59,688 bases of DNA from a virus: IMG/VR virus record IMGVR_UViG_3300033404_000002, positions 1-59,688 of that record, one strand, 5' to 3'. Under the pieces are notes generated by a model. The model was not told the DNA's origin. It made no database searches and was given only the letters and a program-made list of their open reading frames with translations. Made by a program: the position numbers and the translations under genes. This document shows positions 1 to 59,688 of the stretch, piece after piece; the first letter of the stretch is position 1; the number at the start of each line of letters is the position of its first letter.

Positions 1-55
1 ATCCGGTCGACGTCGGTGAGCACCTTGCGTGCCGCCTCGGCGCTCCCGGTCAGCG
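1..55. repeat. Terminal direct repeat, left copy
   Basis: The first 55 bases are identical to 59634-59688. The tape-measure reading frame continues across the join without a stop, so the contig is circular. A repeat of exactly 55 bases is what a de Bruijn assembler with k=55 leaves on a circular contig; a real packaging end is not implied. Confidence 0.97.
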
Positions 56-3760: not shown

Positions 3761-4219
3761 CTACCAGCCCGCCCAGAGCAGGCTTACCGGCCGCGGTGTG
3801 GGCTGCGTCGAGCCCGGATCGTCATGCATCCCGCGCCAGAACGTCGGCTGTACGCGGTCGGTATCCAGCGCATCGCGTTCCTTTTCGGCGATCGACTGGC
3901 CGCCGGCGTAGATCGTCGCACCCTGATCGGCCTGCGCGCGCAGCTTGGCCGCCAGCGCGGCATAGTTCTTGGACAGCTCGGCCAGCTGCTTTGAGCTCCC
4001 GCCCACGCGGTACGTCACCGATTTCGCGAAGTGCGCACAGAGCGCATCCGCCGCAGCGGCCGCGGCGTAATAGAGCCCGCACTCGGAGTCGAGAAAGAAC
4101 TGGATTTCCGCGTCGAAGAGTTTCGCCGACGCGCATTCGGTCTCGCCGACCAGCAGACGAACGGCATCAATCGGCCGTCCAGTTGGGTTGCAAGTGTACG
4201 TCTTACCACTCGATGCCAT
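3761..4219 (-). CDS. Head-tail adaptor-like protein
   Basis: 152 residues. An Ala-rich helical segment (AAAAAADALCAHFAKSV) follows a VGETE...FDAEIQFFLD region, the layout of phage adaptor proteins that dock on the portal ring. It is the first of four small connector genes after the capsid gene. Role inferred from position and helical content. Confidence 0.5.
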   Translation of the reverse strand: MASSGKTYTCNPTGRPIDAVRLLVGETECASAKLFDAEIQFFLDSECGLYYAAAAAADALCAHFAKSVTYRVGGSSKQLAELSKNYAALAAKLRAQADQGATIYAGGQSIAEKERDALDTDRVQPTFWRGMHDDPGSTQPTPRPVSLLWAGW

Positions 4220-4245
4220 TCGTCTGCCCTCTCTAGCCTAGTTGG

Positions 4246-4548
4246 CTAGTCAGTCTCGCTATCGGGTGCCTGCCTGCGGCGGGCGGGTCGCGGGGCGGGC
4301 TCGGGCTCCGGGCGCAGTGCAGGGTCCGACCCTGCGGCTGCACGCGGCACCGCCTGAGGCGGCACACCGCTTAGCCCCTTCACTCCGATGCGGCCGGCTT
4401 GTATTTCGCGCGCGAGCGCGTTTCCGGGCCAGCTGCTGGCCTCTGGGATCACCTCGCCCGGCTGGACGACCCGCAGGCGCGGCCGCCCTCGCTGGTCCAG
4501 TGTGAGGCCCTGCACCTTGCAATGCTGCAGTGCGATGTATTCAGCCAT
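4246..4548 (-). CDS. Small capsid-associated protein of unknown function
   Basis: 100 residues, 12 bases downstream of the major capsid gene. The first half resembles a short folded domain (QHCKVQGLTLDQRGRPRLRV, PGEVI); the second half is a Pro/Arg/Ala-rich tail, PEPEPAPRPARRRQ, probably disordered. Could be a minor head protein; no family recognised. Confidence 0.5.
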   Translation of the reverse strand: MAEYIALQHCKVQGLTLDQRGRPRLRVVQPGEVIPEASSWPGNALAREIQAGRIGVKGLSGVPPQAVPRAAAGSDPALRPEPEPAPRPARRRQAPDSETD

Positions 4549-4560
4549 GCCCTACCGCCT

Positions 4561-5631
4561 TTAGCTGATCGGTGCGAGGAACAGGTGCCCGAGCTCGTTC
4601 GCCACGATGCGCGTGTCGAACGCGAGCTCGCATTCCACGCGGTCAGCCTTCAGATGCGCCATGCGAAAGCGCATCATGCGGCTGGCAAACGCCGAGGCGC
4701 CGAGCAGCCCAGTCCATGCGAACGTGTAGCCCGCGGACGGTACGGCCAGCCCTGGATTGCGCGCGCGGTGCACCAGCAGCGCGTTGTCGCCGACGATGAA
4801 GTCAGACGCCTCGGCGAGACCCTCAGCTGCTGAGTTCTGCACCGCCTCGGCGACTAGCACCTCTTCGAGCTCGAGCACCGCAGCGAGATGCGCGCGCGAG
4901 ACCGTCGCGATGCCGCTCGTCTGTCCCGCGTTGATGCGCGTCACAAAATCCGGGTGATCCTGCAGCACCGCCCAGACCCGAGGACTGAGTACCAGCACGT
5001 TCGGCTTTCGGCCGGTCGCAGCCTGCCGATTGATGATCTCGGCTCGAATGTCTGCGATCGGAGTCGAGCCGACCGCATCCCAGAGCGTGCCAGGCGTATT
5101 CTCACCCGCCCACACACCCGTGATGAAATACGACTCGGCCCAAGTGACGTCGCGCAGAATCATGCACTGCGACATGAGGAAGCGCGTCGCATCCTCATCC
5201 GGCCGCAGCTCCGCATCGGAGTTCGAGCGCTCCTCGTCCGCGATGTCCTTGTGTACCGCGAAGACGTCGCAGAAATACAGGTCCCGGGTAAGCCCGTAGC
5301 CCGAGCCGGCGGACTCGGTCGCGGGTGCACGGCGGCGCGCTTCGCTTCGGTTGAAATCTGCCCGGCTGTACGTCGTGAACATGTTCGACTGAAAATTGAC
5401 CGGGACGACTGGGAACACCTTGTCTGCAATCCAGACGTCCTCGGTCTGCGCGAAGTCGATCGAAATATCGGTCAGCGCACGGTCGACGTGCACGTCCGAC
5501 GCGGTCGGCTGCAGCTTGGCGAAGCGCGTGCTGCGCCCCGCCGCGGTGCCACGCGAGCGGATCGGAAAATTCCGAGTCTTCGCGTAGCGAGCGCGCCTGC
5601 GCGCGCTCCCATACTGTTGAATGTCTCTCAT
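4561..5631 (-). CDS. Major capsid protein
   Basis: 356 residues. The N-terminal 35 residues are Arg-rich, then the body runs strongly folded with IADKVFPVVPV, NFQSNMFTTYSRADF and a C-terminal half with VLSPRVWAVLQDHPDF, features of the large-capsid HK97-like proteins annotated next to DUF2190-type decoration proteins. A Shine-Dalgarno GAGGAG lies about 11 bases before the ATG. It follows the decoration gene and precedes the connectors. It builds the capsid shell. Confidence 0.85.
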   Translation of the reverse strand: MRDIQQYGSARRRARYAKTRNFPIRSRGTAAGRSTRFAKLQPTASDVHVDRALTDISIDFAQTEDVWIADKVFPVVPVNFQSNMFTTYSRADFNRSEARRRAPATESAGSGYGLTRDLYFCDVFAVHKDIADEERSNSDAELRPDEDATRFLMSQCMILRDVTWAESYFITGVWAGENTPGTLWDAVGSTPIADIRAEIINRQAATGRKPNVLVLSPRVWAVLQDHPDFVTRINAGQTSGIATVSRAHLAAVLELEEVLVAEAVQNSAAEGLAEASDFIVGDNALLVHRARNPGLAVPSAGYTFAWTGLLGASAFASRMMRFRMAHLKADRVECELAFDTRIVANELGHLFLAPIS

Positions 5632-9130: not shown

Positions 9131-10513
9131 CTAGTCGGAGAGGTCATCGGTCGTAGCCGGCGGCTTGGGCGGCTGCGGCCCGGGCAAAGGCGGCAGCGGC
9201 AGCTCGGACGGATCCTCGTCCGGCAGGCCCGCCTGCTGGCGCAGGTGGCGCTGCGTGGCCGGTCCCGTGAGGTCGATTCCGGCGTTCGTGAGCTGCGCGA
9301 CGTACGCTCCCAGCTTCTCGATCGATACGCTTTCGATGTCGCCGTGCGCCAGCGTCGGCGTCTCATCGGCTACGAACGCGTTCAGCTCGAGCAGCCGTGG
9401 GATCGCGAAGCGGTTGAACTGCTCGACGATCGCCTCGAGAAACGCCCCGATGGCCACCGCAAACAGCTCAGTCTTGCTCTCAGCGAGCGCGAATGATCCG
9501 GTCTGCCCCGCCTGCCCCAGCATCAGGAAATCGGCGAGCACGGTGCCCACAATGCGGCGGTCGTAGCGATTGATGATCGCGTCGGTGTCGAACTGCCGCT
9601 GTCCGCCGGTTGTGAGCAGCTCGATTTTGTAGGTCTGGTTGCCCTTCTCGTCGTATGCCAGCGGAAATACGATGCCCTCTTTTTCATCGCGGCGAATGTT
9701 CGTCACGATCTGCTCGATTTCCCTGCGCAGTGCGCGCTGCTCGTCTGTGCAGTTCGGGTTTAGCAGCTTGGGCGGCACGAGCGCCATCGGCAGGCCGGTC
9801 AGGTCGCGGTCGACGCCGATTGCCTCGATCGTCTCGATTTTGGTTTTCATGTACCAGGGCCGGTAGGCGTTGCGCAGGATGCTGCGCCCTTCTGGATTGC
9901 CTTTGTGCGCGCTCGGACGAAACAGCAGCAGCCGCTGAATCGGGATGACGCGGATGCGGAAATCCGGCAGCGCCTGTTGATGCAGCCCGATCACGTCGCC
10001 GTGCTCGTCGAACAGCCACCGCTCGATGGTTTCCTGCGCGCGCAGCGCGAGCCGCTTCCAGCCGATGCGCCCGTCTCGGTGTTTGGATCCGAGCGCCGGG
10101 TCGATGTTGCGGCCGCTCCTGCGTTTGTAGACCTCCTCGATCGGTGCGAAGCCAGCCCAGAGCATCGAGAGAATCTCGGAGAGCGTATCGTCCCACGTGT
10201 CATGCATGTCGAAGAGGCAGCTCTCGACGAATTCGGCGATATCGACGTCTCGTGGCGACTCGCTCGCCGGCTCTACGCTCCAGTCTACTTGCCGGATGAG
10301 CATCTCGATCGCGAACAGCAGCGCGCCGATGACCGGGTCGTTGTCGCGCATCTGCTTGAGCACTTTGATTCCGCGCTTGCCGCGCAGCTCGGGCAAGAAC
10401 TCCTCATGAATCATTCCGCCGTGCTGCTCGAGCCCAGAGACTCCGAGTGCTTCGAGCGGGTCGGTGCGGTCCGCTCCCGGCAGGAGCTTCAGCACACTGT
10501 CGTCTGTGGCCAC
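9131..10513 (-). CDS. Portal protein
   Basis: 460 residues, directly after the large terminase (TAGTG overlap, GTG start). The N-terminus PELRGKRGIKVLKQMRDNDP and the VIGALLFAIEMLIRQVDWSV stretch are characteristic of Mu gp29-type/DUF935-like portals; the middle has GFAPIEEVYK and the C-terminus ends in a Pro-rich tail. Forms the dodecameric DNA channel at the capsid vertex. Confidence 0.88.
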   Translation of the reverse strand: MATDDSVLKLLPGADRTDPLEALGVSGLEQHGGMIHEEFLPELRGKRGIKVLKQMRDNDPVIGALLFAIEMLIRQVDWSVEPASESPRDVDIAEFVESCLFDMHDTWDDTLSEILSMLWAGFAPIEEVYKRRSGRNIDPALGSKHRDGRIGWKRLALRAQETIERWLFDEHGDVIGLHQQALPDFRIRVIPIQRLLLFRPSAHKGNPEGRSILRNAYRPWYMKTKIETIEAIGVDRDLTGLPMALVPPKLLNPNCTDEQRALRREIEQIVTNIRRDEKEGIVFPLAYDEKGNQTYKIELLTTGGQRQFDTDAIINRYDRRIVGTVLADFLMLGQAGQTGSFALAESKTELFAVAIGAFLEAIVEQFNRFAIPRLLELNAFVADETPTLAHGDIESVSIEKLGAYVAQLTNAGIDLTGPATQRHLRQQAGLPDEDPSELPLPPLPGPQPPKPPATTDDLSD

Positions 10514-27383: not shown

Positions 27384-27529
27384 CGCGCACCCTCGTCTGC
27401 GCGGTCGAGCTCATCGGCCAACGCCACAAGCGCCGCGGCGAGCTCGCGCGCAGCCAGGCCGACGCGCGTGACGGCTTCCTCAAACTCGAATACGACCCGG
27501 CGATGCTCGATGCACAGGAAAACGCTCAT
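27380..27529 (-). CDS. Small protein, start uncertain
   Basis: 49 residues from the ATG at 27529 (MSVFLCIEHRRVVFEFEEAV); a TTG at 27607 would give 75 residues with a basic N-terminus. Helical C-terminus. Stop overlaps the next gene's ATG by four bases, supporting translation. Unknown. Confidence 0.45.
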   Translation of the reverse strand: MSVFLCIEHRRVVFEFEEAVTRVGLAARELAAALVALADELDRADEGAR

Positions 27530-27628
27530 CTGCGGATCGGCCACCGCGCGGCTCTCGCGCTGCGCGCTGCGGCGCAGCCGGCCGAGCGCGAGCGCTACGC
27601 AGTTCAACGGCCCAGCTCCGCGCCGGCG

Positions 27629-28072
27629 CTACCGCGCACTGCACTGCTCCGGAATGTCCGGACACAGCCGGCCAGAAGCGTTGCAGACGCACGCAATGCG
27701 CCCGCTCACGAGAGCCGGCGGCTCCAGGCACACGCACCGGCAGACCGCATCCGTGCAGCCCGCGCACAGCGAGTTGAAGCAGACACCCTGCAGGTTATCC
27801 ATCGCATCCCAGCAGGCATCCGTCTCGGTCAATCCCATGCCGGCCGAGCCCTCGCGCACGCCGTCGTCGTTCCGGAAATCCTCGCAGATCTGCGGGTCGA
27901 TCGGCGGATCGCGCGGGTCGTCAAAGCCCTCATCGAAGCACTCGTCATCCGGGAGCAGTGGGCCGATGAAATCGGGGTCACAGCCGAGCTGCGCGTGTGC
28001 GCTAGCCGGACCCCAGAAAAGCAGTACGAACGCGAACGCAAGCAGTGCGAGATATACGTAGGTGCGGACCAT
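27629..28072 (-). CDS. Secreted cysteine-rich protein
   Basis: 147 residues from the ATG at 28072. A signal peptide (VYLALLAFAFVLLFWGPAS) ends in an A-H-A site before QLGCDPDF. The mature part is acidic with about 15 cysteines, crowded in CTDAVCRCVCLEP and CVCNASGRLC, so a disulphide-bonded exported protein is predicted. It is the downstream partner of the membrane HEAT-like gene. No family recognised; export by an infected cell suggests a surface or periplasmic task such as exclusion. Confidence 0.65.
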   Translation of the reverse strand: MVRTYVYLALLAFAFVLLFWGPASAHAQLGCDPDFIGPLLPDDECFDEGFDDPRDPPIDPQICEDFRNDDGVREGSAGMGLTETDACWDAMDNLQGVCFNSLCAGCTDAVCRCVCLEPPALVSGRIACVCNASGRLCPDIPEQCSAR

Positions 28073-28073
28073 G

Positions 28074-28835
28074 TTAGCGGGCTCCTGCACGGCCCAGCGC
28101 ATCCTGCGCGGCCTTGCGTACGGGGTCGGATGAATCGGTGAGCAGCGTGCGCGCGATCGGCACCACGCCGTCATCGCGCACGTAGGCGAGCGCCTGCGCG
28201 ACGACCAGCCGCACGGCGGGAGAGGGATCCCTCGCGGCCTCGCTCAGGTACGGCAATGCCTTGGGGCTGCGCAGCCGCGAGAGATCGTTCGCAGCCCGAA
28301 AGCGCCGCTCCTCGTCGTACTGGGGCGCGATCTGCTGGCCGACCTGCTCCGCAATGCGCTCGCTCTCGCGCGCATCGCCGCGGCGCTCCAGCGCAGCCGC
28401 TGCGGCGAACATCCACATACGGTTGCCGGACTGCGCCCACTCGTAGAGCTGCGTCTCGACCGCGCCGCTCGGCTCATCGGCGAGCGAGAGAATCGCGGCG
28501 TAGGCTTGGCCCCAGTCGCCCGAGCGCGCGCGCGGACTCAGCGCGTCCAGCTGGCGCTGCACCGCCTCGATCTTTTGATCCGGCGCGAGTGCACTGGCGC
28601 TCGGGCGCCCCACTGCGGGCGCGGGCGCACTCGTGCCCGGTGCCCGCGCTACAGCGCCGCCGGGCACGGGCGTGGCGCTATTCGAGCCCTCGCCCTGTGG
28701 CTGCTCCGCAGCCGCTGCGCTGGGCCGCTCGGGCAGCGTGACGTGCGTGCGCTTGACCGTGCTCGCACCGAGCCCAAAGCCCAGCGCAGCCGTGCACAGA
28801 TAAGCGATCGGGTGAAACCATCGTGCTCTACTCAT
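28074..28835 (-). CDS. Membrane-anchored HEAT-like repeat protein
   Basis: 253 residues from the ATG at 28835 (GGGAG upstream). A single N-terminal transmembrane helix (PIAYLCTAALGFGLGAST) is followed by an Ala/Pro/Gly-rich linker (about 40-100) and a helical C-terminal domain. The last 70 residues contain two HEAT-like units (PKALPYLSEAARDPSPAVRL and GVVPIARTLLTDSSDPVRKA). The signal-anchor puts the repeats outside the cytoplasmic membrane. Stop and next start are separated by one base, so it is co-translated with the cysteine-rich protein. Unknown function. Confidence 0.6.
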   Translation of the reverse strand: MSRARWFHPIAYLCTAALGFGLGASTVKRTHVTLPERPSAAAAEQPQGEGSNSATPVPGGAVARAPGTSAPAPAVGRPSASALAPDQKIEAVQRQLDALSPRARSGDWGQAYAAILSLADEPSGAVETQLYEWAQSGNRMWMFAAAAALERRGDARESERIAEQVGQQIAPQYDEERRFRAANDLSRLRSPKALPYLSEAARDPSPAVRLVVAQALAYVRDDGVVPIARTLLTDSSDPVRKAAQDALGRAGAR

Positions 28836-28893: not shown

Positions 28894-29091
28894 CTAAATG
28901 CGCCCGAGCAGATCACTCGGGTCGATCTCCTCGACGAGCTCCGCGCATGCGCCGATCACGATGCGGTGCATTTCGCCATTGTGAGATTGCTCTGCGAACT
29001 CAAGCAGCCGGTTTACAGCTGCCTCCTGAAAGGCGCGCATGCCAGCCAGCATCGCCTCGTCACCGAAGCCGTCCGCGCGCTTACTGCTCAT
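28894..29091 (-). CDS. Small helical protein after recT
   Basis: 65 residues from the ATG at 29091, overlapping recT by 11 bases. Contains MLAGMRAFQEAAVNRLLEFA and VIGACAELVEEIDPSDLLGR. Probably cytoplasmic; not recognised. A role in recombination is only suggested by position. Confidence 0.5.
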   Translation of the reverse strand: MSSKRADGFGDEAMLAGMRAFQEAAVNRLLEFAEQSHNGEMHRIVIGACAELVEEIDPSDLLGRI

Positions 29092-29953
29092 CGGCCTGCG
29101 CGTCCGCCTCGTCGTATACCGCATCGCCCAGTGGCGCTTCGGGCACTTCGGGCGCGAGCGTGCCCAGATTTTGAGGCAGCCCGAACGTCGCTTGCTCGTC
29201 GAGCGTGGTCCCGGTCGCCAGCCGCTCGATCGACGTGGGCAGGCGCTTCGAGAGATGCCGGAGCGCCGTTTTCATCCACATCTCATCGGGATAGCGCTGC
29301 CAGGGCGAGCTCGCGCCTTCGGATGAGCGGCTCGCCGCTTTCGCCTGCAGCACCTTGTCACGCGTCAGCACGTCGAACATCACCACATCGGTGTTTTTCA
29401 GCTGCGCGAGCGCGTACGCATGCGTCATCTTGTTCGCGTCTTCGACGCCGCTCACATCGCGGTCGTCGCACGGCACGTGATCGAGAAAGCCTCGCGTGCC
29501 GTACTGATACTGGAACCGGTCGACCGCACCGTACACGACATTCGCCGAGACCATCGCCAGCTCGCCGGACTGATACGCCATTTTGAGTAGCCCGCGGTAG
29601 CCGAGCATGAGCTGCACTTCGCTGCAGCCCTTCTGCGTGTTGCGGAACGGCAGCAGCCAGCACTCGCCATTGATGCCCGGCATCAGCCCCAGCTGCGCCG
29701 CCTGCACCACCGAGCCGACCAGTGAGCTCTGCGTACACTGTAAAAGTTTCGGCTCCAGCGCAACTGAGGTCATGACGAGCTCGATCATGCGTCCCGAGGT
29801 CACCGACCGCGGCAAAACCGCGTCAAACTTCGCTTGATAGCCGCCCAGCAGCGTCCGTACCGTCGCGTGCTGCGTCCGCAGTACCGCTACAGCTCTCTCC
29901 GCCTGATTCGCCGCTCCTGCCGCCGTCTGCGGCCTCGCGCGTGATGCTCCCAT
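29081..29953 (-). CDS. recT: RecT-family single-strand annealing protein
   Basis: 290 residues. Family pattern is plain: TSVALEPKLLQCTQSSLVGS, VVQAAQLGLMPGINGECWLL, PFRNTQKGCSEVQLMLGYRG, LLKMAYQSGEL, VYGAVDRFQYQYGT, then PWQRYPDEMWMKTALRHLSK. It anneals complementary single strands and pairs with the exonuclease encoded just upstream (30197). GAGGGG lies before the ATG. The 5' end overlaps a membrane/zinc ORF by 131 bases. Confidence 0.93.
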   Translation of the reverse strand: MGASRARPQTAAGAANQAERAVAVLRTQHATVRTLLGGYQAKFDAVLPRSVTSGRMIELVMTSVALEPKLLQCTQSSLVGSVVQAAQLGLMPGINGECWLLPFRNTQKGCSEVQLMLGYRGLLKMAYQSGELAMVSANVVYGAVDRFQYQYGTRGFLDHVPCDDRDVSGVEDANKMTHAYALAQLKNTDVVMFDVLTRDKVLQAKAASRSSEGASSPWQRYPDEMWMKTALRHLSKRLPTSIERLATGTTLDEQATFGLPQNLGTLAPEVPEAPLGDAVYDEADAQADEQ

Positions 29954-30200
29954 CTGTGCTTACCCCTCTTGTGTGTGTGTGTTTAGGATTGCACTTCGCG
30001 TGAAATATGTACGCCGTCTCGCCGACGATGCGCGGCACGAGCGCCTCGGGCGAGGCAAACGGCTCGCCGCAAAAATCGCAGTGTGCGCGGCGCCATCGTG
30101 CGATCAGCCGCTGCCCGACGTACCAGAGCGCACCGACCACGGGCAGCCACAGCAGCGCCTGTGCGATCCCGACGAGCAGGACGGCCAGCGGACCGCTCAC
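29823..30200 (-). CDS. Small membrane protein with zinc knuckle, 3' end overlaps recT
   Basis: 125 residues between exonuclease (4-base overlap) and recT. An N-terminal transmembrane helix (AVLLVGIAQALLWLPVVGAL) precedes CDFC and a later Cys (FHAKC). After residue 81 the frame runs 131 bases into recT, an unusual overlap, and a (CA)n tract lies exactly at the transition (about 29970-29983). The last 44 residues are Ser/Gly-rich and may be a by-product of the overlap. Confidence 0.5.
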   Translation of the reverse strand: MSGPLAVLLVGIAQALLWLPVVGALWYVGQRLIARWRRAHCDFCGEPFASPEALVPRIVGETAYIFHAKCNPKHTHTRGVSTDGSITREAADGGRSGESGGESCSGTADAARDGTDAAGRLSSEV

Positions 30201-31111
30201 CGCGGCTTCGGCATGCGCAGCACGGTAAAACTCGTGTCTTCTACGGTGTAGCCTTTGCGCTGCTGCAGTTTGTGCGTCGCCACGCGCCCATCGGGCATGC
30301 GCGCTACTTCCGCATCGCCGAACATGGCAAGGATTCTATTTTTCAGCTCGTCCTCTTTGCCTTTGCAGGTTTTGAGCTCGGCTTTGATCGCGACGAGCGC
30401 GTCCGCCAGCAGCACGAAGTCGTTTCCCACCGCGATCTCCTTTCCGCCGATCGGCTGCGGATACAGCGCCTTGAGCGCGTTCGCGGTAGACACCGATCCG
30501 TCCGCCTCGGGCGCCTCGCCGCGCAGCACCGCGCCGTAAAATTCCTCGGTCCGCGCCACCAGCCGCTCGATGTAGTTCTCATCGCGGCGCACCGGGTGCA
30601 CCTCGAACGCCGCACCGCCAAAGCCGCCCAGACGCAGGTACCCCACGTTCGCACGCCGAAAACCCGTCACGGCGAGCTGATGCTGCACCTGGCAGAAGAC
30701 ATCTTCGGGGACCACGCCGTCCCACTCGTACGACGTGGCTTTCGCCTCGCAGAGCACGTTGAGCTCCTCGCCCCGCGGGCCGACCGCTCGCGCGTCGGGC
30801 GTGCACAGCATCCACGGCCACTTCACAGAGCGCAGCAGCTCGCCCCAGCGTACATGCGCCGTCTTCGTCTTCTCGGCCGTGCGCTCGATGACGTAGTTCT
30901 CGAGAAACTGCCCTAGCCGTGCGCTCTCGCCCGCAGTGGCGTCAAAGTCGTCGACCAGCTTCGAGGCGAACACCGCATAGGGCGAGGTCCAGGGCGAGAG
31001 CCCCATCACAGCGGCCGCGTCCGAGCTGCCGATGCCGCCCTGGCGAAGCCGCAGCCACTCCGTGCGCGTCACGTCCGCGCCGATCACCTCAAACGCTGGC
31101 TGTTTCCCCAT
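30197..31111 (-). CDS. YqaJ-type (lambda exonuclease superfamily) recombination nuclease
   Basis: 304 residues from the ATG at 31111; a GTG nine bases earlier is also possible. RLRQGGIGSSDAAAVMGLSP is the family's opening, followed by LGQFLE (Glu), the catalytic MLCTPDARAVG (Asp) and VLCEAKATSYEWD (Glu-x-Lys), and CQVQHQLAVTGFRRANVGY. It resects double-stranded ends to give RecT its substrate. The C-terminus adds a helical region. Confidence 0.92.
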   Translation of the reverse strand: MGKQPAFEVIGADVTRTEWLRLRQGGIGSSDAAAVMGLSPWTSPYAVFASKLVDDFDATAGESARLGQFLENYVIERTAEKTKTAHVRWGELLRSVKWPWMLCTPDARAVGPRGEELNVLCEAKATSYEWDGVVPEDVFCQVQHQLAVTGFRRANVGYLRLGGFGGAAFEVHPVRRDENYIERLVARTEEFYGAVLRGEAPEADGSVSTANALKALYPQPIGGKEIAVGNDFVLLADALVAIKAELKTCKGKEDELKNRILAMFGDAEVARMPDGRVATHKLQQRKGYTVEDTSFTVLRMPKPR

Positions 31112-31156
31112 GCGCGCCACGATAGCGTGGCCGCATGCACAAGTCGATAGCGCAGC

Positions 31157-38938: not shown

Positions 38939-39484
38939 ATGAGCGCACAGATCGGCTCCGAGCAACGCACTGCATGGTATTCCGCCTGCGGACACTACCG
39001 CTACCAGCTCAACGTGGCATGGGAGAGCATGCTACCGGCAGTGCAGTTTATCGGGCTCAATCCCTCGACCGCGACCGAGCGGCAGGACGACCCGACCGTG
39101 CGCCGCTGTAAGCGCTTCGCGGAGGGCTGGGGCTACGGAACGCTGGTCATGACGAATCTCGCCGCGTTCCGCGCCACCGATCCCGCGCGGATGCACAGCG
39201 CACCAGACCCGATCGGACCGGAGAACGACGTGGAATTTCTCGGCTCGCGCGGGCCCGCCGTCGTGATCTGCGCGTGGGGCACGCACGCCAAGGATCCGGC
39301 GCTGTACCGCCACAGCCTCGCCGTGCTCGCCAAACTCAGCCAGCGCGCGCACGTGCTCCGGCTCACCCGCGAGGGCTTTCCGAGCCACCCGCTGTATCTG
39401 CCCGCCGCCTTGCGCCCCGTGCCCTACCACGCAGCGCAGCCCCCGCTCTCGATGGCGGGCAGTGCCGAGCAGCCCGCACGGTGA
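38939..39484 (+). CDS. DUF1643 family protein
   Basis: 181 residues from the ATG at 38939. The signature is plain: FIGLNPSTATERQDDPTVRR, CKRFAEGWGYGTLVMTNLAA, ATDPARMHSAPDPIGPEND and VVICAWGTHAKDP, ending in SHPLYL. DUF1643 proteins are common in phages and mobile elements; their function is unknown to me. GTGA overlap with the next gene. Confidence 0.82.
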   Translation: MSAQIGSEQRTAWYSACGHYRYQLNVAWESMLPAVQFIGLNPSTATERQDDPTVRRCKRFAEGWGYGTLVMTNLAAFRATDPARMHSAPDPIGPENDVEFLGSRGPAVVICAWGTHAKDPALYRHSLAVLAKLSQRAHVLRLTREGFPSHPLYLPAALRPVPYHAAQPPLSMAGSAEQPAR

Positions 39485-39729
39485 ACAGCCGCCCGTGCCG
39501 CTACTGCGGGATGCAAATCGCGTTCGTGAAGCACGTCGGATCCGGCCGCATGCTACCGCTGCAGTTGGTGAAAAATGTGTATGGCATCGAGGGCGAGCTC
39601 GCCACGCCGCACAATCTCGGCGAGAGCTACGTCAGCCACTGGGAAACGTGCCCCAACGTGGCCGACGCGAAGGCGGACGCAGCGCGCGCACTCGAGGATG
39701 AGTGCAAGCGCGCGGATCCCGACTCATGA
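39481..39729 (+). CDS. Small zinc-finger protein
   Basis: 82 residues, GTG start. CRYCGMQIAFVKHVGSGRML and a later HWETCP (His and Cys about 40 residues on) give a CxxC...HxxxC zinc finger seen in many phage small proteins. Function unknown. Confidence 0.6.
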   Translation: MNSRPCRYCGMQIAFVKHVGSGRMLPLQLVKNVYGIEGELATPHNLGESYVSHWETCPNVADAKADAARALEDECKRADPDS

Positions 39730-40109
39730 GCGAGCGCATGGAAGGCAACGCCACGCGGATGAGCACGAATGAAGAGCTGCGCTTTCTCGCGCGCATCCTG
39801 TGCGGACCGCAAACCGGAGCTCTGTTCAGCAACCGGCATAAAGGACACTGGGGCAATCAAAGCCTCGACTGGCTGTGTGCCCGCGCACGCGAAGAGCTCC
39901 ACGAGCTACAGGTCGCAATTCGCGCGTTCAACGGCGCGGACGAGGACGCGCTCGGCCGCACGCTGGAAGCGCTCGAGCATGAGTGCGCCGACGTGGCCAA
40001 TTTCGTCGCGATGATTCTGGACGTGGCTCGCGCGCGCGTACACGAGCACAATGAGCAACGTGAGAGCGAAGTGGACCGAGCACCGCGTCGCCCCACTGAT
40101 GGGCAATAA
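39726..40109 (+). CDS. MazG-like nucleotide pyrophosphohydrolase
   Basis: 127 residues, ATGA overlap. GHWGNQSLDWLCARAREELH followed by HECADVANFVAMILDVA gives the helical EE-x-x-E ... E-x-x-D arrangement of the all-alpha NTP-PPase (MazG/dUTPase-like) superfamily. Such enzymes cleave NTPs or dNTPs to monophosphates, and phage forms may adjust nucleotide pools or alarmones. Substrate not predictable. Confidence 0.7.
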   Translation: MSERMEGNATRMSTNEELRFLARILCGPQTGALFSNRHKGHWGNQSLDWLCARAREELHELQVAIRAFNGADEDALGRTLEALEHECADVANFVAMILDVARARVHEHNEQRESEVDRAPRRPTDGQ

Positions 40110-40269: not shown

Positions 40270-40436
40270 TCTGCTTTTACTGCGCGCGGAGCGTCTCGGA
40301 CGAGCTGCCCGAGGGCTCCGTCCTGCGCGCGATCGCGATCTGCCCAGAGTGCATCGAACGCGCAGGCGATGACGTCTGGGACGCGCTCGCGCTTGCGATA
40401 GGGCCACCCAAAGCCCTGGGATGTGACGAGTGCTAA
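40257..40436 (+). CDS. 59-residue double-CxxC protein (previously uncalled)
   Basis: GTG start at 40257 overlapping the end of the preceding gene; stop TAA at 40434-40436. VRLICFYCARSVSDELPEGS and AIAICPECIERAG give CxxC and CPEC knuckles 25 residues apart, plus a terminal CDEC. It fills what would otherwise be a 250-base gap, and resembles small phage zinc ribbons. Confidence 0.6.
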   Translation: MVRLICFYCARSVSDELPEGSVLRAIAICPECIERAGDDVWDALALAIGPPKALGCDEC

Positions 40437-40474
40437 GGGTTTCGCCGGATCCGTCGATACGGCTAGCGTAGCTC

Positions 40475-40490
40475 TATCCACTAGTCGATA
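40475..40490. promoter_or_regulatory. TATCGA-type element, one mismatch
   Basis: TATCCACTAGTCGATA leads into GATAAT (40487-40492), a near-consensus -10, in the 89-base gap before the 40526 gene. Downstream comes GGGGCACAGACAGTCTGG, a CAGAC box shared with the 17.6-kb and 40.9-kb copies. Confidence 0.7.
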
Positions 40491-40525
40491 ATGCAGGGGC
40501 ACAGACAGTCTGGAGTGTCGCCCGC

Positions 40526-40921
40526 ATGCCCCCGCAGCCAACGCGCACGAACGTCTATCTCGAGCTGCCGCTCGATGCCGCAGACGCCCTCATCGCCTGC
40601 AACGTCCTGGACGCGCACGCCGATCGCCTGACCACGGGCTGCAGCGCGCGCACAAACCCGAGCGCGTACGACCGCGCCCATGCCCTGCGCGTCCTCGTGC
40701 TGCTCATCGAGCGCGGCTGCGAGCTCAGCTGGGGCGCCCTGTGGCCGCAGGCGAGCTCGCCCATTCGCTACGAGCTGCCGCTGTTTCCCGCCGCGGCGCT
40801 CCTCTTGCTCGAGACGCTCGAGCTAGAAAAAGCACTGCTGCCGCTGCGCACCGCGCTCGAGCGCCTGTGCGTCCAGACCTGGGGCGAGGACTGGACCGAG
40901 CTGCTGGGCATCGATGAATAG
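40526..40921 (+). CDS. Unknown helical protein
   Basis: 131 residues. Helical and Leu-rich (YDRAHALRVLVLLIERGCEL, PAAALLLLETLELEKALLP). It forms its own small transcription unit behind a TATCGA-type element. No family recognised. Confidence 0.55.
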   Translation: MPPQPTRTNVYLELPLDAADALIACNVLDAHADRLTTGCSARTNPSAYDRAHALRVLVLLIERGCELSWGALWPQASSPIRYELPLFPAAALLLLETLELEKALLPLRTALERLCVQTWGEDWTELLGIDE

Positions 40922-42277: not shown

Positions 42278-42724
42278 ATGAATCACCGAAGCACGTTCGC
42301 CTCGATCCTCGCGGTCGCAGTCCTGGTCACCCTCGCACCCGCCCAGAGCCACGCCGGCGAGACCGGCAATTACTTCGCCGCAGCCGGCCAGAAACTCGGG
42401 TTTGGCGCGCTCAGCGCGCTCTACTCTCCGCTCGAGCTCATCGTCACGCCCGTCGCCTTCGGCCTGCAGATGGACCGAGACGGGCGCTCCCTGCTCGGTG
42501 TGCTGTGCGGCATCCCCGCCGGCGCCGTCAACATGAGCATGCGGCTGGCGGAAGGCTCGCGCGACGTGCTCACATTCCCGCTCACCACAGGCGCGCGCGA
42601 CTACGGGTTTTCGGCATCGCCCCACGTCACCGGGTGGAACATGCTACGGGTCGAACGACCGCAGGCCCACAGCATCCCGGCGTTCTCGCCCCAGAAGCGC
42701 AGCGCGATCCCCTCGCTCGACTAG
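42278..42724 (+). CDS. Secreted TIGR04073-like protein
   Basis: 148 residues. Signal peptide MNHRSTFASILAVAVLVTLA with cleavage near SHA-GET. The mature part (KLGFGALSALYSPLELIVTP, GIPAGAVNMSMRLAEGSRDV, LTFPLTTGARDYGF) resembles the TIGR04073 family of exported proteins, which bacteria with exosortase systems carry in several copies; function unknown. Rare in a phage and expressed from its own element-controlled unit, so it may alter the envelope of the infected or lysogenic cell (inference). Confidence 0.6.
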   Translation: MNHRSTFASILAVAVLVTLAPAQSHAGETGNYFAAAGQKLGFGALSALYSPLELIVTPVAFGLQMDRDGRSLLGVLCGIPAGAVNMSMRLAEGSRDVLTFPLTTGARDYGFSASPHVTGWNMLRVERPQAHSIPAFSPQKRSAIPSLD

Positions 42725-42820: not shown

Positions 42821-43759
42821 ATGGCTGCACACGCGCGGCACCGAGAGCTGCGCTGCGGAGGGTATGTGCCGACACAGAACGATGCGCTGGCCTTGCTGCG
42901 GCGCGCTGCCGCAGCGGAGTGCTACCGACTGCACCCGCAGGTGCGCCTTGAGCTCGCGGCCGATGATCTCGTCGGCGAGATGATCGTGCGGCTGGGCGCA
43001 GACCTCAGCCGCATTCACTGCCGGGCCTTCGCTCGTCAGCTCGCGCGCAACGTCTGCACCGACTGGCAGCGCAAGCTGCTCGGCCAGACACCCGGCGGAC
43101 GGCTCGCGCGCCAGCGCTATCAGAGCGCAGCCTACGGCAGCTCCGCCATCGCGGACGCGGACGAGGGCGCGGACGATCCGAGCGCACCGCGGGTCTGGCA
43201 ACGAGTAGACCCGCGCACGGCAGAAGCGGCGCTGATCGCGCAGCAACCCGCGCTCGCCGACCGCCTGCGGGATCTGCCCACGCTTGAGCGCCGTGCACTG
43301 CTGCTGCGCACCCGCGGCCTGCCACACCGAGCGGTCTGCGAGCAGCTCGGACTGCAGCGCACGAGCATCGGCTACTCGGTCGCGCTCGAGCACCGCGGAC
43401 TGCGCCGCCTTGAGGGCGCGCGCATCGCAGAGCGCATCGCGCACCGACCACGCCGGCCGCTCGCGCTCCGGTCCGAGCCGCCCGATCCGCGCCCGCCGAT
43501 GCTCGTGCACAGCGCTTTCAGTCGCTACCTGGATCATGCCCAGCTGCCCGCGCTCTCGCTCGCCGACCGCACCCTGATCACCGCCAAGGCTGCCGGCATC
43601 CCGCACCGCGAGATCTGCGCCATGCTCGGCAAACCCGAGCGCTACATCCCGGTCGTGCCCCAGCGCGCCAAGCGCATCGCGCGCAAGCTCGAGGGCCTTG
43701 CCGTCCGCGCGCGCGTGCGCGCTGCTCAGCGTGCCGCCGCCCGCGAGGTGCTCGCGTGA
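42821..43759 (+). CDS. Sigma-factor-like regulator with two HTH segments
   Basis: 312 residues. Region-2-like part: LAADDLVGEMIVRLGADLSR, FARQLARNVCTDWQRKLLG. Region-4-like part: LERRALLLRTRGLPHRAVCE, QLGLQRTSIGYSVALEHRGL. A second, related HTH occurs near the C-terminus: LADRTLITAKAAGIPHREIC and AMLGKPERYIPVVPQRAKRI. This layout fits an ECF-type sigma factor with a duplicated region 4. It lies just before the lysis genes, where phage late activators are often encoded. GTGA overlap with the holin candidate. Confidence 0.62.
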   Translation: MAAHARHRELRCGGYVPTQNDALALLRRAAAAECYRLHPQVRLELAADDLVGEMIVRLGADLSRIHCRAFARQLARNVCTDWQRKLLGQTPGGRLARQRYQSAAYGSSAIADADEGADDPSAPRVWQRVDPRTAEAALIAQQPALADRLRDLPTLERRALLLRTRGLPHRAVCEQLGLQRTSIGYSVALEHRGLRRLEGARIAERIAHRPRRPLALRSEPPDPRPPMLVHSAFSRYLDHAQLPALSLADRTLITAKAAGIPHREICAMLGKPERYIPVVPQRAKRIARKLEGLAVRARVRAAQRAAAREVLA

Positions 43760-44034
43760 CCGAGTGGGCGGTCGAAGTCCTCGCGCAAACACCGGTCGCG
43801 GTCGCGGTGCTCGCAGCGGTGCAGATGATGCTGCGCCATCAGCAGCGGGTCTATGAACGCTTCCGCAAGGCGCACGAGGACTCCGAGAAGCGCTCGGCCG
43901 AGGTGATCCGAGATTCATCGGAAGCCATCCGGGAGTGCGCGCGTGCGCACGGCGAAGCGAGCGCACGGTTTTCCGAGGCGACGCAGCTGATTCGCCAGCT
44001 CGCAGCCCACCAGGGCGGGCAGGTCGCCGGCTGA
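43756..44034 (+). CDS. Holin candidate (BhlA-like topology)
   Basis: 92 residues, GTG start. One N-terminal hydrophobic helix (VEVLAQTPVAVAVLAAVQMM) followed by a charged coiled coil (RVYERFRKAHEDSEKRSAEV). Directly precedes the endolysin with a TGATG overlap. Single-helix plus charged-tail proteins in this slot are holin or holin-accessory candidates. Confidence 0.6.
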   Translation: MTEWAVEVLAQTPVAVAVLAAVQMMLRHQQRVYERFRKAHEDSEKRSAEVIRDSSEAIRECARAHGEASARFSEATQLIRQLAAHQGGQVAG

Positions 44035-44828
44035 TGAGCGATCCCGAGATCTGCAGCGCGCTACACCTGCAGCTATTGCTCGGACGGCTGGGCGCGAGCT
44101 ACCTCCTGCTCGACGGCCGCATCGACTCCGCCACGGCCGACGCCGTGCGCACCTACCAGCACAGCTCGGGACTCGTCCCGGACGGCGTCGCGGGCCCGAT
44201 CACCCGCGCCGCGCTCACTGCGGACGCGCTCGCCCGCTCGCTCGCGGAGCGATTCGACGCCTTTGACGGCTTTCGCGGCTCGCTCGGCCTGCTCGTGCAG
44301 TGGGAGGGGCACGCCGGCGCGCCCTACGTACCCACCGGTCCGCATTCCGGCCTGACACTCGATCCAGGCTTTGACCTGCGCTTTCACCACGCAGGCGAGC
44401 TGCGCGCACTCTATCGCAACGTGTTCACGGCCAAGCAGCTCGGGGTGCTCGCCGGAGCCTGCGGCCTGAAAAACGCAGACGCACGTGCGTTTTGCGCACA
44501 GCTCGAGCCCGGCGCATTTGCGATCGGCCGCACCGCGGCCGCGCTCGTGCTGCCCCGCATCGCCGCGCCGTACTGGGACGCCGTGCTCAGCGTGACGCAG
44601 CACGTGGTGCTCGCGCCGCCAGCCGTGCAGTCCGCCCTGCTCTCGCTCGCGTACAACGCCGGACCCGACGACCTCGAGCCGCTGCGCGGCATGCTCACCC
44701 GCAAGGACTGGCACCTACTGCCCGCCGCCTTCGCGGCGATCCCCAAGGTACAGGCCCGCCGCGAAGCCGAAGCCGATCTCATCGCGTGGGCGCTTGGCTC
44801 GCGCACCGAGCCCGGGCTACTCGCCTAG
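44034..44828 (+). CDS. Endolysin: peptidoglycan-binding domain plus muramidase
   Basis: 264 residues. Residues about 8-60 form a PG_binding_1 domain (LDGRIDSATADAVRTYQHSS, GLVPDGVAGPITRAAL). The catalytic part starts VQWEGHAGAPYVP with Glu-91 as the expected acid, then SGLTLDPGFDLRF and a later ALLSLAYNAGPDDL, like T4-lysozyme/pesticin-type muramidases. No signal peptide, so it needs the holin. The 3' end overlaps the convergent secreted-protein gene by 12 bases. Confidence 0.82.
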   Translation: MSDPEICSALHLQLLLGRLGASYLLLDGRIDSATADAVRTYQHSSGLVPDGVAGPITRAALTADALARSLAERFDAFDGFRGSLGLLVQWEGHAGAPYVPTGPHSGLTLDPGFDLRFHHAGELRALYRNVFTAKQLGVLAGACGLKNADARAFCAQLEPGAFAIGRTAAALVLPRIAAPYWDAVLSVTQHVVLAPPAVQSALLSLAYNAGPDDLEPLRGMLTRKDWHLLPAAFAAIPKVQARREAEADLIAWALGSRTEPGLLA

Positions 44829-45638: not shown

Positions 45639-45640
45639 TG

Positions 45641-45712
45641 GAGAAACGGCGGGACTCGAACCCGCACTTCACGATTTCAGGTCGTGTGGTCTACCGTTTG
45701 ACCTACGTTTTT
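45641..45712 (-). tRNA. tRNA-like gene, anticodon UGA by position, non-canonical C33
   Basis: 72 bases fold as a cloverleaf on the minus strand: acceptor AAAAACG/CGTTTCT (one A-C mismatch), D-stem GGTC/GACC with a GG-containing loop, anticodon stem CACGA/TCGTG with loop CCTGAAA, variable AAGT, T-stem GCGGG/CCCGC with loop TTCGAGT. By position the anticodon is TGA (Ser), but U33 is replaced by C and the long Ser variable arm is missing. It may be degenerate, or have a special role. Confidence 0.7.
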
Positions 45713-57104: not shown

Positions 57105-59688
57105 CAGAAGAGCGCCGGGCCTTCGCTGCCAAGCGCCGACGTCGCCGCGCTCGATCCGCCGCTGGGGACGCTGCCCGTGCTCGCGCCGGTTGCGGCCCGC
57201 GCGGCCCGCGCAGTGTTCTCTTCGATGCGCAGCAGAATCTGATTCGTCCCGATGAACGAGTCTGCAATCGCGGGCGCTACCTGCGCGATCGCAATCCCGG
57301 TCGGGCCCGCCACGATGCCGCGCACCCGCTCGACGCTGTCCGCCGCCGAGCGCACCCGGCCCGCTTCGCTTCGCACGCGATCCTCGCGTCCGAACGCCTG
57401 CAGGCCCGCGCCCACGACTGCGAGCGCCGCATCGCCGAACAGCTCGCCTGCGCCCTCGCCGAACAGCCCGCCGAGCGATTCGCCGAGCCCGCCGAGCGGT
57501 CCGCCGGGCGCGGTGAGACCCGAGAAGAGCGCCCCGAACGCATCCGCTGCGCCGCTGAGCGCGCTATCGAGCAGCGCGCCCAGCCCGTCGACGGCGCTCT
57601 CGAATGCCTCGTCGAGCCCCTCCTGTGCACGGTCGCGGAGCAAGCCGCCTATGTTCGCGGCGAAATCCGCGCTCCGGCCGCCCGCCAGGTCGAGCAGCGA
57701 GTTGCCGAATGCGCGGGCCAGTCCCTCGCCCATGCTCTCCTCGACGACGAGCGGCAGCGTCTCGCGGATTTCCTGCGAGATGCGCGCCACCGCAGCCACT
57801 GCAGCCCGCGGATCATCGCCCGCAGCCACGAGCGCATCCTGCAGGTCGAGCGCGAATGCGGTCGCCTCGGCGGAATCGAACCGCGCAAGCTCGGCGATCT
57901 GCGCGTTCACGGCCTCGAGCGTGGCCGGCAGCGTCTGCTGCGCACGAAACTGCGCCTCGGCAAGCTCGGCCTGCTCCTCGAGCACCTTGGCGCGCTCCTC
58001 GATCAGCCTCGAGGTGATCAGCTCGGCAGTGACCCTGCGGCCGGCGATCTCGCCCAGGCGCTCGGCTGCAGCGATCTCCCGGTTCAGCTCCTCGATCCGG
58101 CGGTCCGCGCCCTCGAGCGCCCGCAGGTCGACCGCTGCGCGGATCTGATCGAGTTCGCGCGCAGCAGACAGCCGCTCGCCCTCGACCCGCCGCAGCGCGT
58201 CGATTTCTTCCTCTTCGATTCGTGCGATGCGGTCCAGCTCGGCCTGCTCCGCGCGGTCGCGGATCGCCTGCGCCACGTTCGCCGCAGCGCGGAGCTGCTC
58301 GGTCGCGTCCGCGCCGGCCGAGGTGAGCGCGTCGGAGAGCTGCACCGCGAAGTCGCGCGCCGCCGTCGGGTCGACCGTCCCCAGCGCTGCGATCTGCTCG
58401 TTTACCGCAGCGAGAATCTCCGGCAGGTTCTCCTCGGCCTGCGCGAGCGTGCGGGCGAGCTCGATGCGCTCACGCGCGAGCCCGTTCAGCACCTCGGCCT
58501 GCGTGGCGCGGTCTACTTCCGCCGCCTCGAGCGCCCCTACCCGGCGAATCTCCTCGTCCAGCGCGTCGATTTCAGCCTGGATCCCCTCGACCCGATTGAG
58601 CACAGCCAGGCTCTGCCGCAGATTTTCCGCGACCTTTTGCTGCGCCTCGGAGCGGTCCAGCAGCGAAGCGGCGTTTGCCTCGTTCGCAGCGGTGTTGCGC
58701 TGCGTCGCGGACGTGGCCTCGTCGAGCGCGAAGCGGAATTCGAACGTGTCGCCCGTGACGTCGATCAGCGAGTTCAGGAATCCAAAAAAGCTGCGCTCGG
58801 CGTTTCGCGCCGCGGGCACCAGCTGCGTGTTGAACACGTTCGCGAGCGCCTGAAACGGCGCGGAGTCGGTGAGGTCGATCGACTTGATCGTCGCGATCGC
58901 GCCGCTCAGATTCCCCGTTGCCAGCTGACCTGCGGCGAGCGCCACGCTGCCGAACGTCTCGACCAGCTCCTGAATCGCGGTGCCCGCAGCGAAAATCGCA
59001 GTCTGTACGCCCTGCAGCCCTGCACCGAAAATCGCGAATGCGGTACTCGCGACCTGTACGGCGGCTGCGCCGAGCGAGACCAGCAGATTGCGGAACAGAG
59101 TAAACAGCGCCGAGCTCGCCTGGATCGCCGGGCCGAAGTCTCGGACCGACTCGGTCAAATTGCCAAAGGCGCGCTGCGTGGCAAATGCGCGGCTCACCGC
59201 GTCCGGCGCGAGCAGCTCGCCGAACGTCCGGGACGTGGTCTGTGCTGCGATCGTGGCGTTCGAGAGCGCACCCGAAAGCGTCCGCGCGCGCGCCTCGGCC
59301 GCACCGAATGCCCGGCCGCCCTCGCTCGTCAGGTCGCGGAACGCCTGCAGCAGCGCCTCGCCCGAGAGCGCCGCGACGTCGGTCTGTCCAGACACCTCGA
59401 GCAGTAGCTGCGAGATGCCCGACTCGCGCAAAATCTCGGCCGAGCCCAGACCGCTCGTCAGCGCACGCTGGATGTTCGGCGCGATCTGCTCCAGGCCACG
59501 TCCAGACACCGCGGCGATGTCCGCGGCGATCGCGGTGAACTCGGAAATCGCATCCGTGTCCTCGCCGAATACGACCGCCAGCTGCCGCGCCGTGTCGCTC
59601 AGCTCCTGCAGCCCGAACGGCGTGGCGAGCACGATCCGGTCGACGTCGGTGAGCACCTTGCGTGCCGCCTCGGCGCTCCCGGTCAGCG
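57104..59688 (-). CDS. Tape measure protein, main part
   Basis: Continuation of the 1-428 gene across the circular join; together 985 residues, stop TGA at 57104. Early part: VRLL-type helical block with LTDVDRIVLATPFGLQELSD and SGLGSAEILRESGISQLLLE, a common tape-measure core. Then a long helical rod, hydrophobic segments near AGRSADF and DALFSGLTAP, and a Gly/Ser/Ala-rich C-terminus. Two regions of about 100 residues are related (LPEILAAVNEQIAALGTVDP near 545 and LPATLEAVNAQIAELARFDS near 710). At about 1.5 angstroms per residue the tail would be roughly 150 nm. Confidence 0.93.
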   Translation of the reverse strand, partial: LTGSAEAARKVLTDVDRIVLATPFGLQELSDTARQLAVVFGEDTDAISEFTAIAADIAAVSGRGLEQIAPNIQRALTSGLGSAEILRESGISQLLLEVSGQTDVAALSGEALLQAFRDLTSEGGRAFGAAEARARTLSGALSNATIAAQTTSRTFGELLAPDAVSRAFATQRAFGNLTESVRDFGPAIQASSALFTLFRNLLVSLGAAAVQVASTAFAIFGAGLQGVQTAIFAAGTAIQELVETFGSVALAAGQLATGNLSGAIATIKSIDLTDSAPFQALANVFNTQLVPAARNAERSFFGFLNSLIDVTGDTFEFRFALDEATSATQRNTAANEANAASLLDRSEAQQKVAENLRQSLAVLNRVEGIQAEIDALDEEIRRVGALEAAEVDRATQAEVLNGLARERIELARTLAQAEENLPEILAAVNEQIAALGTVDPTAARDFAVQLSDALTSAGADATEQLRAAANVAQAIRDRAEQAELDRIARIEEEEIDALRRVEGERLSAARELDQIRAAVDLRALEGADRRIEELNREIAAAERLGEIAGRRVTAELITSRLIEERAKVLEEQAELAEAQFRAQQTLPATLEAVNAQIAELARFDSAEATAFALDLQDALVAAGDDPRAAVAAVARISQEIRETLPLVVEESMGEGLARAFGNSLLDLAGGRSADFAANIGGLLRDRAQEGLDEAFESAVDGLGALLDSALSGAADAFGALFSGLTAPGGPLGGLGESLGGLFGEGAGELFGDAALAVVGAGLQAFGREDRVRSEAGRVRSAADSVERVRGIVAGPTGIAIAQVAPAIADSFIGTNQILLRIEENTARAARAATGASTGSVPSGGSSAATSALGSEGPALF
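59634..59688. repeat. Terminal direct repeat, right copy
   Basis: Exact copy of bases 1-55. When one copy is removed the genome is 59,633 bp. Confidence 0.97.

What the first reader, a model, noticed from the sequence alone, without database searches (positions are those of the whole stretch)
27629..28835. Exported pair: Cys-rich secreted protein and membrane-anchored HEAT-like protein
Two adjacent, co-translated genes in the early accessory belt both carry export signals. One has about 15 cysteines in about 120 mature residues; the other exposes helical repeat units beyond a transmembrane anchor and a long Ala/Pro linker. Exported disulphide-rich proteins are uncommon among phage early genes. 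Together they could form a surface complex such as a superinfection-exclusion or receptor-masking system (inference).
Basis: inference. Interest (0 to 1): 0.6.

Follow-up and report, generated by a model that had tools for sequence, protein, structure and literature searches.

The report
Phage-exported HEAT protein and cysteine-rich partner
An uncultivated phage carries, in its replication-gene block, two adjacent genes for proteins that appear to be sent out of the cytoplasm (a helical-repeat protein on a membrane tether and a small cysteine-packed protein); no relatives of either were found, and a role in changing the host envelope or blocking rival phages is plausible but unproven.

Summary
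On the minus strand, gene B (28074-28835, 253 aa) has a weak N-terminal membrane or signal segment, a 50-residue Ala/Pro linker and a HEAT solenoid (Pfam HEAT_2 2.6e-15; AlphaFold helices at residues 85-252). One base downstream, gene A (27629-28072, 147 aa) has a strong signal peptide and 14 Cys in 120 mature residues (1.1 expected). Both frames are the coding ones. The window is a complete circularly closed phage genome (55-bp identical ends). The pair sits below RecT and YqaJ, 14 kb from the lysis genes. Neither protein has a full-length relative in IMG/VR, INPHARED, Pfam, PHROGs or NCBIfam. A also has none in plasmids, PDB or the GTDB scan. The closest related phages lack both genes in the sequence held. 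B's solenoid matches only generic HEAT repeats. A bacterial genome does encode tandem lipoprotein/Ala-Pro/HEAT proteins of the same layout beside an exosortase. So this is an ORFan envelope-directed accessory pair. Superinfection exclusion or receptor masking remains the leading specific guess (about 0.25), but nothing here tests it. The features of spanins and of Llp/Cor-type exclusion lipoproteins were tested and not met. Interest is modest.

The parts
28074..28835 (-). Gene B: N-terminal membrane/signal segment (about residues 6-27), Ala/Pro-rich linker (35-84), HEAT-repeat solenoid (85-252); 253 aa
   Evidence: ORF and start; HEAT_2 2.6e-15 and HEAT 1.2e-8 over Pfam cut-offs; AF2 ten helices 85-252, pLDDT mostly 80-90; alphaRep/HEAT structures best in PDB by sequence and fold; hydropathy and codon statistics
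27629..28072 (-). Gene A: signal peptide (1-27, predicted cut AHA|QLGC) and 120-residue mature domain with 14 Cys, acidic first half, CxxC/CxC-rich second half; 147 aa
   Evidence: no Pfam, PHROG, PADLOC or PDB match; one sub-cut-off NCBIfam match (E 0.033) to the signal region only; AF2 of the mature part uninformative, pLDDT 51
28073..28073 (-). 1-base gap between B stop (TAA) and A start (ATG), with AGGAG inside B's 3' end as probable ribosome-binding site of A
27992..28072 (-). Coding part of A's predicted signal peptide
   Evidence: MVRTYVYLALLAFAFVLLFWGPASAHA, 12-residue hydropathy 3.08, highest of 76 window genes
28894..29091 (-). Upstream small ORF (65 aa) between RecT and B, same transcription direction; context
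29081..29953 (-). RecT single-strand annealing protein; context, marks the replication/recombination block
   Evidence: Pfam RecT 2.6e-35; PHROG 148
30197..31120 (-). YqaJ-type exonuclease; context
   Evidence: Pfam YqaJ 3.7e-21

Best explanation
A and B are an early-block accessory ('moron'-type) pair made to act in the host envelope. B is inserted through the inner membrane or exported through it, and presents a HEAT solenoid on a flexible Ala/Pro tether in the periplasm. A is secreted by the general secretory route and folds through disulphides. The likeliest arrangement is that B's solenoid is the binding platform and A its partner, or a second effector delivered by the same mRNA. The pair would bind or lock a host envelope component during infection, most plausibly to keep other phages from adsorbing or injecting. 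Shown here: the genes, frames, 1-base spacing, HEAT fold, Cys content and location. Predicted: export of both. Inferred: interaction, early timing, and any exclusion function.
For: Adjacent genes with a 1-base gap and an internal ribosome-binding site. Both N-termini are hydrophobic, A very strongly. 14 Cys (an even number) sit in an otherwise Cys-poor proteome. The solenoid is confirmed by profile, fold and PDB comparison. They lie in the minus-strand run of replication initiator, primase-helicase, YqaJ, RecT, B and A, away from the endolysin block at 43.8-44.8 kb. Absence from related phages is typical of accessory cargo. Bacteria encode exported proteins of B's layout: tandem lipoprotein/Ala-Pro/HEAT genes in L287, one 42% identical to B over 72 aa. 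Precedent: T5 Llp, a small exported protein with a disulphide, blocks FhuA from the periplasm, and many phages make exclusion proteins early (PMC9586334).
Against: No homolog, conserved pairing, host identity or expression data. B's N-terminal segment is only moderately hydrophobic. Early expression is inferred from gene order; no sigma-70 promoter-like site was found in 26-34.5 kb. Nothing links either protein to a receptor or an injection apparatus.
Confidence: 0.4

Rival explanations
1. The two genes are independent exported cargo: B a captured host-type HEAT scaffold, A a small secreted Cys-rich protein (for example metal-binding or protective in the periplasm). They benefit the infected or lysogenic host and do not act as one complex.
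For: B's layout has cellular precedent. A has CxCxC and CxC motifs like metal-binding or disulphide-rich peptides. Other phages carry unrelated Cys-rich exported proteins without a HEAT partner found: L217, L256 and G034 39562-39765.
Against: The 1-base spacing and shared export argue for coordinated production. The mature part of A has no His, and exported thiols are normally oxidised, which does not favour a metallothionein-like role.
Confidence: 0.3
2. The pair is an unusual lysis (spanin-like) system: B as inner-membrane component, A as partner crossing the periplasm.
For: Membrane-anchored periplasmic protein followed directly by a second exported protein, as in two-component spanins; disulphides matter in spanins (PMC6139136).
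Against: A has no lipobox (QLGC against [LVI][ASTVI][GAS]C); the genes are 14-16 kb from the endolysin block and on the other strand; B is a solenoid, not an extended coiled coil.
Confidence: 0.05
3. B is an anti-phage defence or anti-defence HEAT protein and A is incidental.
For: PADLOC HEAT-ARM_XIII matches B at 2.6e-10.
Against: Only 71 of 1972 model positions match and they are just HEAT repeats; no effector domain is present, and the N-terminus points outside the cytoplasm.
Confidence: 0.07
4. A is not a real gene; the Cys-rich frame is a by-product of a gene on the other strand.
For: Long plus-strand ORFs overlap it: 27468-28061 and 27503-28141.
Against: Codon log-odds +25.9 for A against -29.8 and -11.2 for the antisense ORFs; GC3 pattern, signal peptide, ribosome-binding site and operon direction all favour A.
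Confidence: 0.03

Closest known systems
Exported bacterial HEAT-repeat lipoproteins with Ala/Pro linker (L287 4766-5335 and 5335-5961; genome drawn from the phylum of Myxococcales MAG FL481)
   Same: Export signal, Ala/Pro-rich linker, C-terminal HEAT repeats; 42% identity to B over 72 aa
   Different: They have a lipobox-like GGC/LGC and stand beside an exosortase gene, with no Cys-rich partner found; B has no lipobox and a longer solenoid; similarity is limited to HEAT repeats
T5 Llp / T1-phi80 Cor superinfection-exclusion lipoproteins
   Same: Small exported phage protein; Llp has a Cys11-Cys58 disulphide and is described as expressed early (PMC9586334)
   Different: A has no lipobox, 14 Cys, no detectable homology to any PHROG, and a co-encoded HEAT partner
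Two-component spanins (Rz/Rz1)
   Same: Inner-membrane protein plus adjacent exported partner
   Different: No lipobox, no coiled coil, wrong genomic location and strand
P22 SieA and other inner-membrane exclusion proteins
   Same: Phage-encoded inner-membrane protein thought to act on injection (PMC10883804)
   Different: SieA is predicted to have three membrane helices and is about 160 aa; B has one N-terminal segment and a large soluble solenoid; no direct sequence comparison was made
Designed alphaRep / natural HEAT-repeat proteins
   Same: Same solenoid fold; best PDB sequence and fold matches
   Different: Artificial or cytoplasmic binders; fold only, not function

Membership tests
HEAT-repeat proteins | Tandem antiparallel helical repeats matching the HEAT profile over its curated cut-off | tested here: met
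   HEAT_2 56.9 bits (cut-off 27.7), HEAT 34.8 (23.5); ten-helix solenoid
Secreted disulphide-rich protein (gene A) | N-terminal signal peptide with signal peptidase I site | tested here: inconclusive
   Strong n/h/c regions, AHA|Q, top hydropathy in the genome; no trained predictor available
Secreted disulphide-rich protein (gene A) | Cys paired in disulphides | not testable with these tools
   14 Cys, an even number; AF2 model too poor
Llp/Cor superinfection-exclusion lipoproteins | Lipobox [LVI][ASTVI][GAS]C | tested here: not met
   Only candidate is QLGC at residues 28-31 (consensus quoted)
Llp/Cor superinfection-exclusion lipoproteins | Sequence relation to a known exclusion family | tested here: not met
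   No PHROG, Pfam or INPHARED match
Superinfection exclusion system (any) | Blocks adsorption or injection of a second phage | not testable with these tools
   Needs plaque and adsorption assays
Two-component spanin | o-spanin lipoprotein partner | tested here: not met
   A has no lipobox
Two-component spanin | Located with holin/endolysin genes | tested here: not met
   Endolysin at 44034-44828 on the plus strand; the pair is at 27.6-28.8 kb on the minus strand
PADLOC HEAT-ARM_XIII defence candidates | Full-length match to the 1972-position model | tested here: not met
   Only 71 positions match
Conserved two-gene system | Co-occurrence of A and B in independent genomes | tested here: not met
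   No second occurrence in viral contigs, INPHARED or related records for either gene; genome contigs scanned for A only

The most novel reading that the evidence does not exclude
A previously undescribed two-component phage exclusion or envelope-modifying device: an inner-membrane-tethered periplasmic HEAT solenoid that captures or displays a co-translated, disulphide-rich secreted protein to block a host receptor or DNA entry route.
Probability: 0.15. Interest if true: 0.6.

Novelty: new variant of a known kind. Interest (0 to 1): 0.3.

Why it matters
Phages often encode small exported proteins that reshape the host envelope or shut out rivals, but few are understood and most known ones are single lipoproteins or small membrane proteins. 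An exported HEAT solenoid paired with a Cys-packed secreted protein would be a different architecture for that job. As matters stand it is one ORFan pair from an uncultivated phage of unknown host, so its value is as a candidate for testing.

Tried and rejected
Direct relatives of A or B: none in IMG/VR, INPHARED at E<=1, plasmids for A or GTDB genome contigs for A. Weak hits of A in 284 genomes of the Myxococcales MAG's phylum and 398 genomes of the Gallionellaceae MAG's phylum were inspected and rejected: the alignments do not align the Cys pattern, and the best one lies antisense to a PAS/GGDEF/EAL gene. Synteny through TerL, a conserved structural gene, YqaJ and RecT reached related phages, but none carried the pair. 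A search for other Cys-rich exported ORFs in all fetched loci gave mostly frame artefacts plus two related lipoproteins (L217, L256) unlike A. The spanin, defence-HEAT and antisense-artefact ideas were considered and rejected (see rivals). The A structure model was too poor to use. Fold search of B in viral structures gave no match with E<=0.001. Host assignment failed: terminase relatives spread over several phyla. Three literature searches for a precise precedent were nearly empty.

Full report
What is there. The window is a complete virus record: its first and last 55 bases are identical, as expected for a circularly closed assembly of 59,633 bp. The pair lies on the minus strand. B (28074-28835, ATG 28835) is followed after one base by A (27629-28072, ATG 28072), whose AGGAG ribosome-binding site lies inside the end of B. 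The frames are the coding ones: codon log-odds are +25.9 (A) and +50.3 (B), all other frames and the overlapping antisense ORFs are negative, and GC by codon position resembles well-supported genes of the same phage.

Protein B. Residues 171-248 match HEAT_2 at 2.6e-15, over the Pfam cut-off. AlphaFold from the single sequence gives ten helices from 85 to 252 with confidence mostly 80-90, and the nearest solved structures by sequence and by fold are alphaRep/HEAT proteins. Residues 35-84 are a linker with 14 Ala and 9 Pro in 50. The N-terminus has a 22-residue uncharged stretch of moderate hydropathy, 4th of 76 genes on the GES scale; random sequence of B's solenoid composition reaches it with P 0.001-0.02. 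Export is therefore likely but not certain, and anchor versus cleaved signal is open.

Protein A. It has the strongest N-terminal hydrophobic core of the genome, a c-region ending AHA, then QLGC, which is not a lipobox. The 120-residue mature part holds 14 Cys against 1.1 expected from the phage proteome (P about 1e-11). The N-terminal half is very acidic and the C-terminal half carries CxxC, CxCxC and CxC spacings. It has no match in Pfam, PHROGs, PADLOC or PDB, only a sub-cut-off NCBIfam match confined to the signal region, and no usable model.

Context. Gene order along the minus strand runs from a replication-initiator-like gene, a primase-helicase (31392) and YqaJ (30197) through RecT (29081) and a 65-aa ORF to B and A, then to small genes of unknown function, a DUF7694 protein and a C5-methylase. 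The endolysin and a small candidate holin lie at 43.8-44.8 kb on the plus strand. So the pair belongs to the replication/early accessory block, not to lysis. No integrase was seen among the families searched, although not every gene was scanned.

Relatives. Two IMG/VR records are 99.5-99.99% identical fragments of this phage but do not reach the pair. The nearest distinct phages, G034 (46 kb) and G001 (30 kb), share structural genes at up to 77% amino-acid identity, and G035 shares fewer. None carries A or B. In G034 the genes downstream of its RecT (32% identical) are unrelated to A and B. These records are incomplete, so absence refers to the sequence held. Direct scans found no relative of A or B anywhere, and wider synteny scans through YqaJ, RecT and TerL found none either. 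Marginal hits for A in cellular genomes are chance.

Architectural precedent. In a genome drawn from the phylum of a Myxococcales MAG, two tandem genes encode lipoproteins with an Ala/Pro linker and HEAT repeats, end to end with an exosortase gene. One is 42% identical to B over 72 residues. This shows that exported HEAT proteins of B's layout exist in bacteria, so B may be captured host-type cargo. It does not show a shared function.

Function. The most economical reading is an envelope-directed accessory pair. Superinfection exclusion is the best-known job for small exported early phage proteins: T5 Llp is periplasmic, has a disulphide and is described as expressed early (PMC9586334), and P22 SieA acts from the inner membrane (PMC10883804). 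But the defining features of Llp/Cor lipoproteins and of spanins were tested and not met, and no result links this pair to a receptor. I put about 0.25 on exclusion or receptor masking specifically, inside about 0.4 for a jointly acting envelope pair.

Verdict. The pair is ordinary enough as accessory phage cargo, unusual in architecture, and has no comparative support so far.

Noticed in passing
window 1-55 and 59634-59688: Identical 55-bp ends: the record looks like a complete circularly closed genome.
   Followed up: yes
window 42278-42724 (+): Small exported protein before the lysis genes with a sub-cut-off but notable match (7.9e-4) to TIGR04073, an exosortase system-associated family; the best HEAT-layout relative of B also sits beside an exosortase. 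Possible hint at an exosortase-bearing host.
   Followed up: partly
window 42866-43759 (+): Sigma-70 region 4 / ECF-like protein directly upstream of the candidate holin and endolysin (Pfam 1.7e-6, NCBIfam TIGR02937 4.5e-8): a candidate phage-encoded sigma factor.
   Followed up: no
window 45640-45712 (-): A 73-nt tRNA called Ser(TGA) lacks the long variable arm of serine tRNAs and, read this way, has C at position 33; its decoding identity is odd.
   Followed up: no
L094 2317-2733 (record G034 40317-40733): Related phage G034 encodes a prokaryotic phospholipase A2-like protein (PF09056, 1.5e-6, just under the cut-off) near an Amidase_2 gene; possible lipid-attacking lysis or entry enzyme.
   Followed up: partly
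L094 1562-1765 (record G034 39562-39765); L217 about 4150-4610; L256 about 10000-10465: Other phages carry small Cys-rich apparent lipoproteins unrelated in sequence to A; those of L217 and L256 resemble each other.
   Followed up: partly
L287 4766-5961: Two tandem lipoprotein/Ala-Pro linker/HEAT-repeat genes end to end with an exosortase in a bacterial genome.
   Followed up: partly
window 39041-39484 (+): DUF1643 protein (2.9e-32) in the plus-strand accessory region.
   Followed up: no
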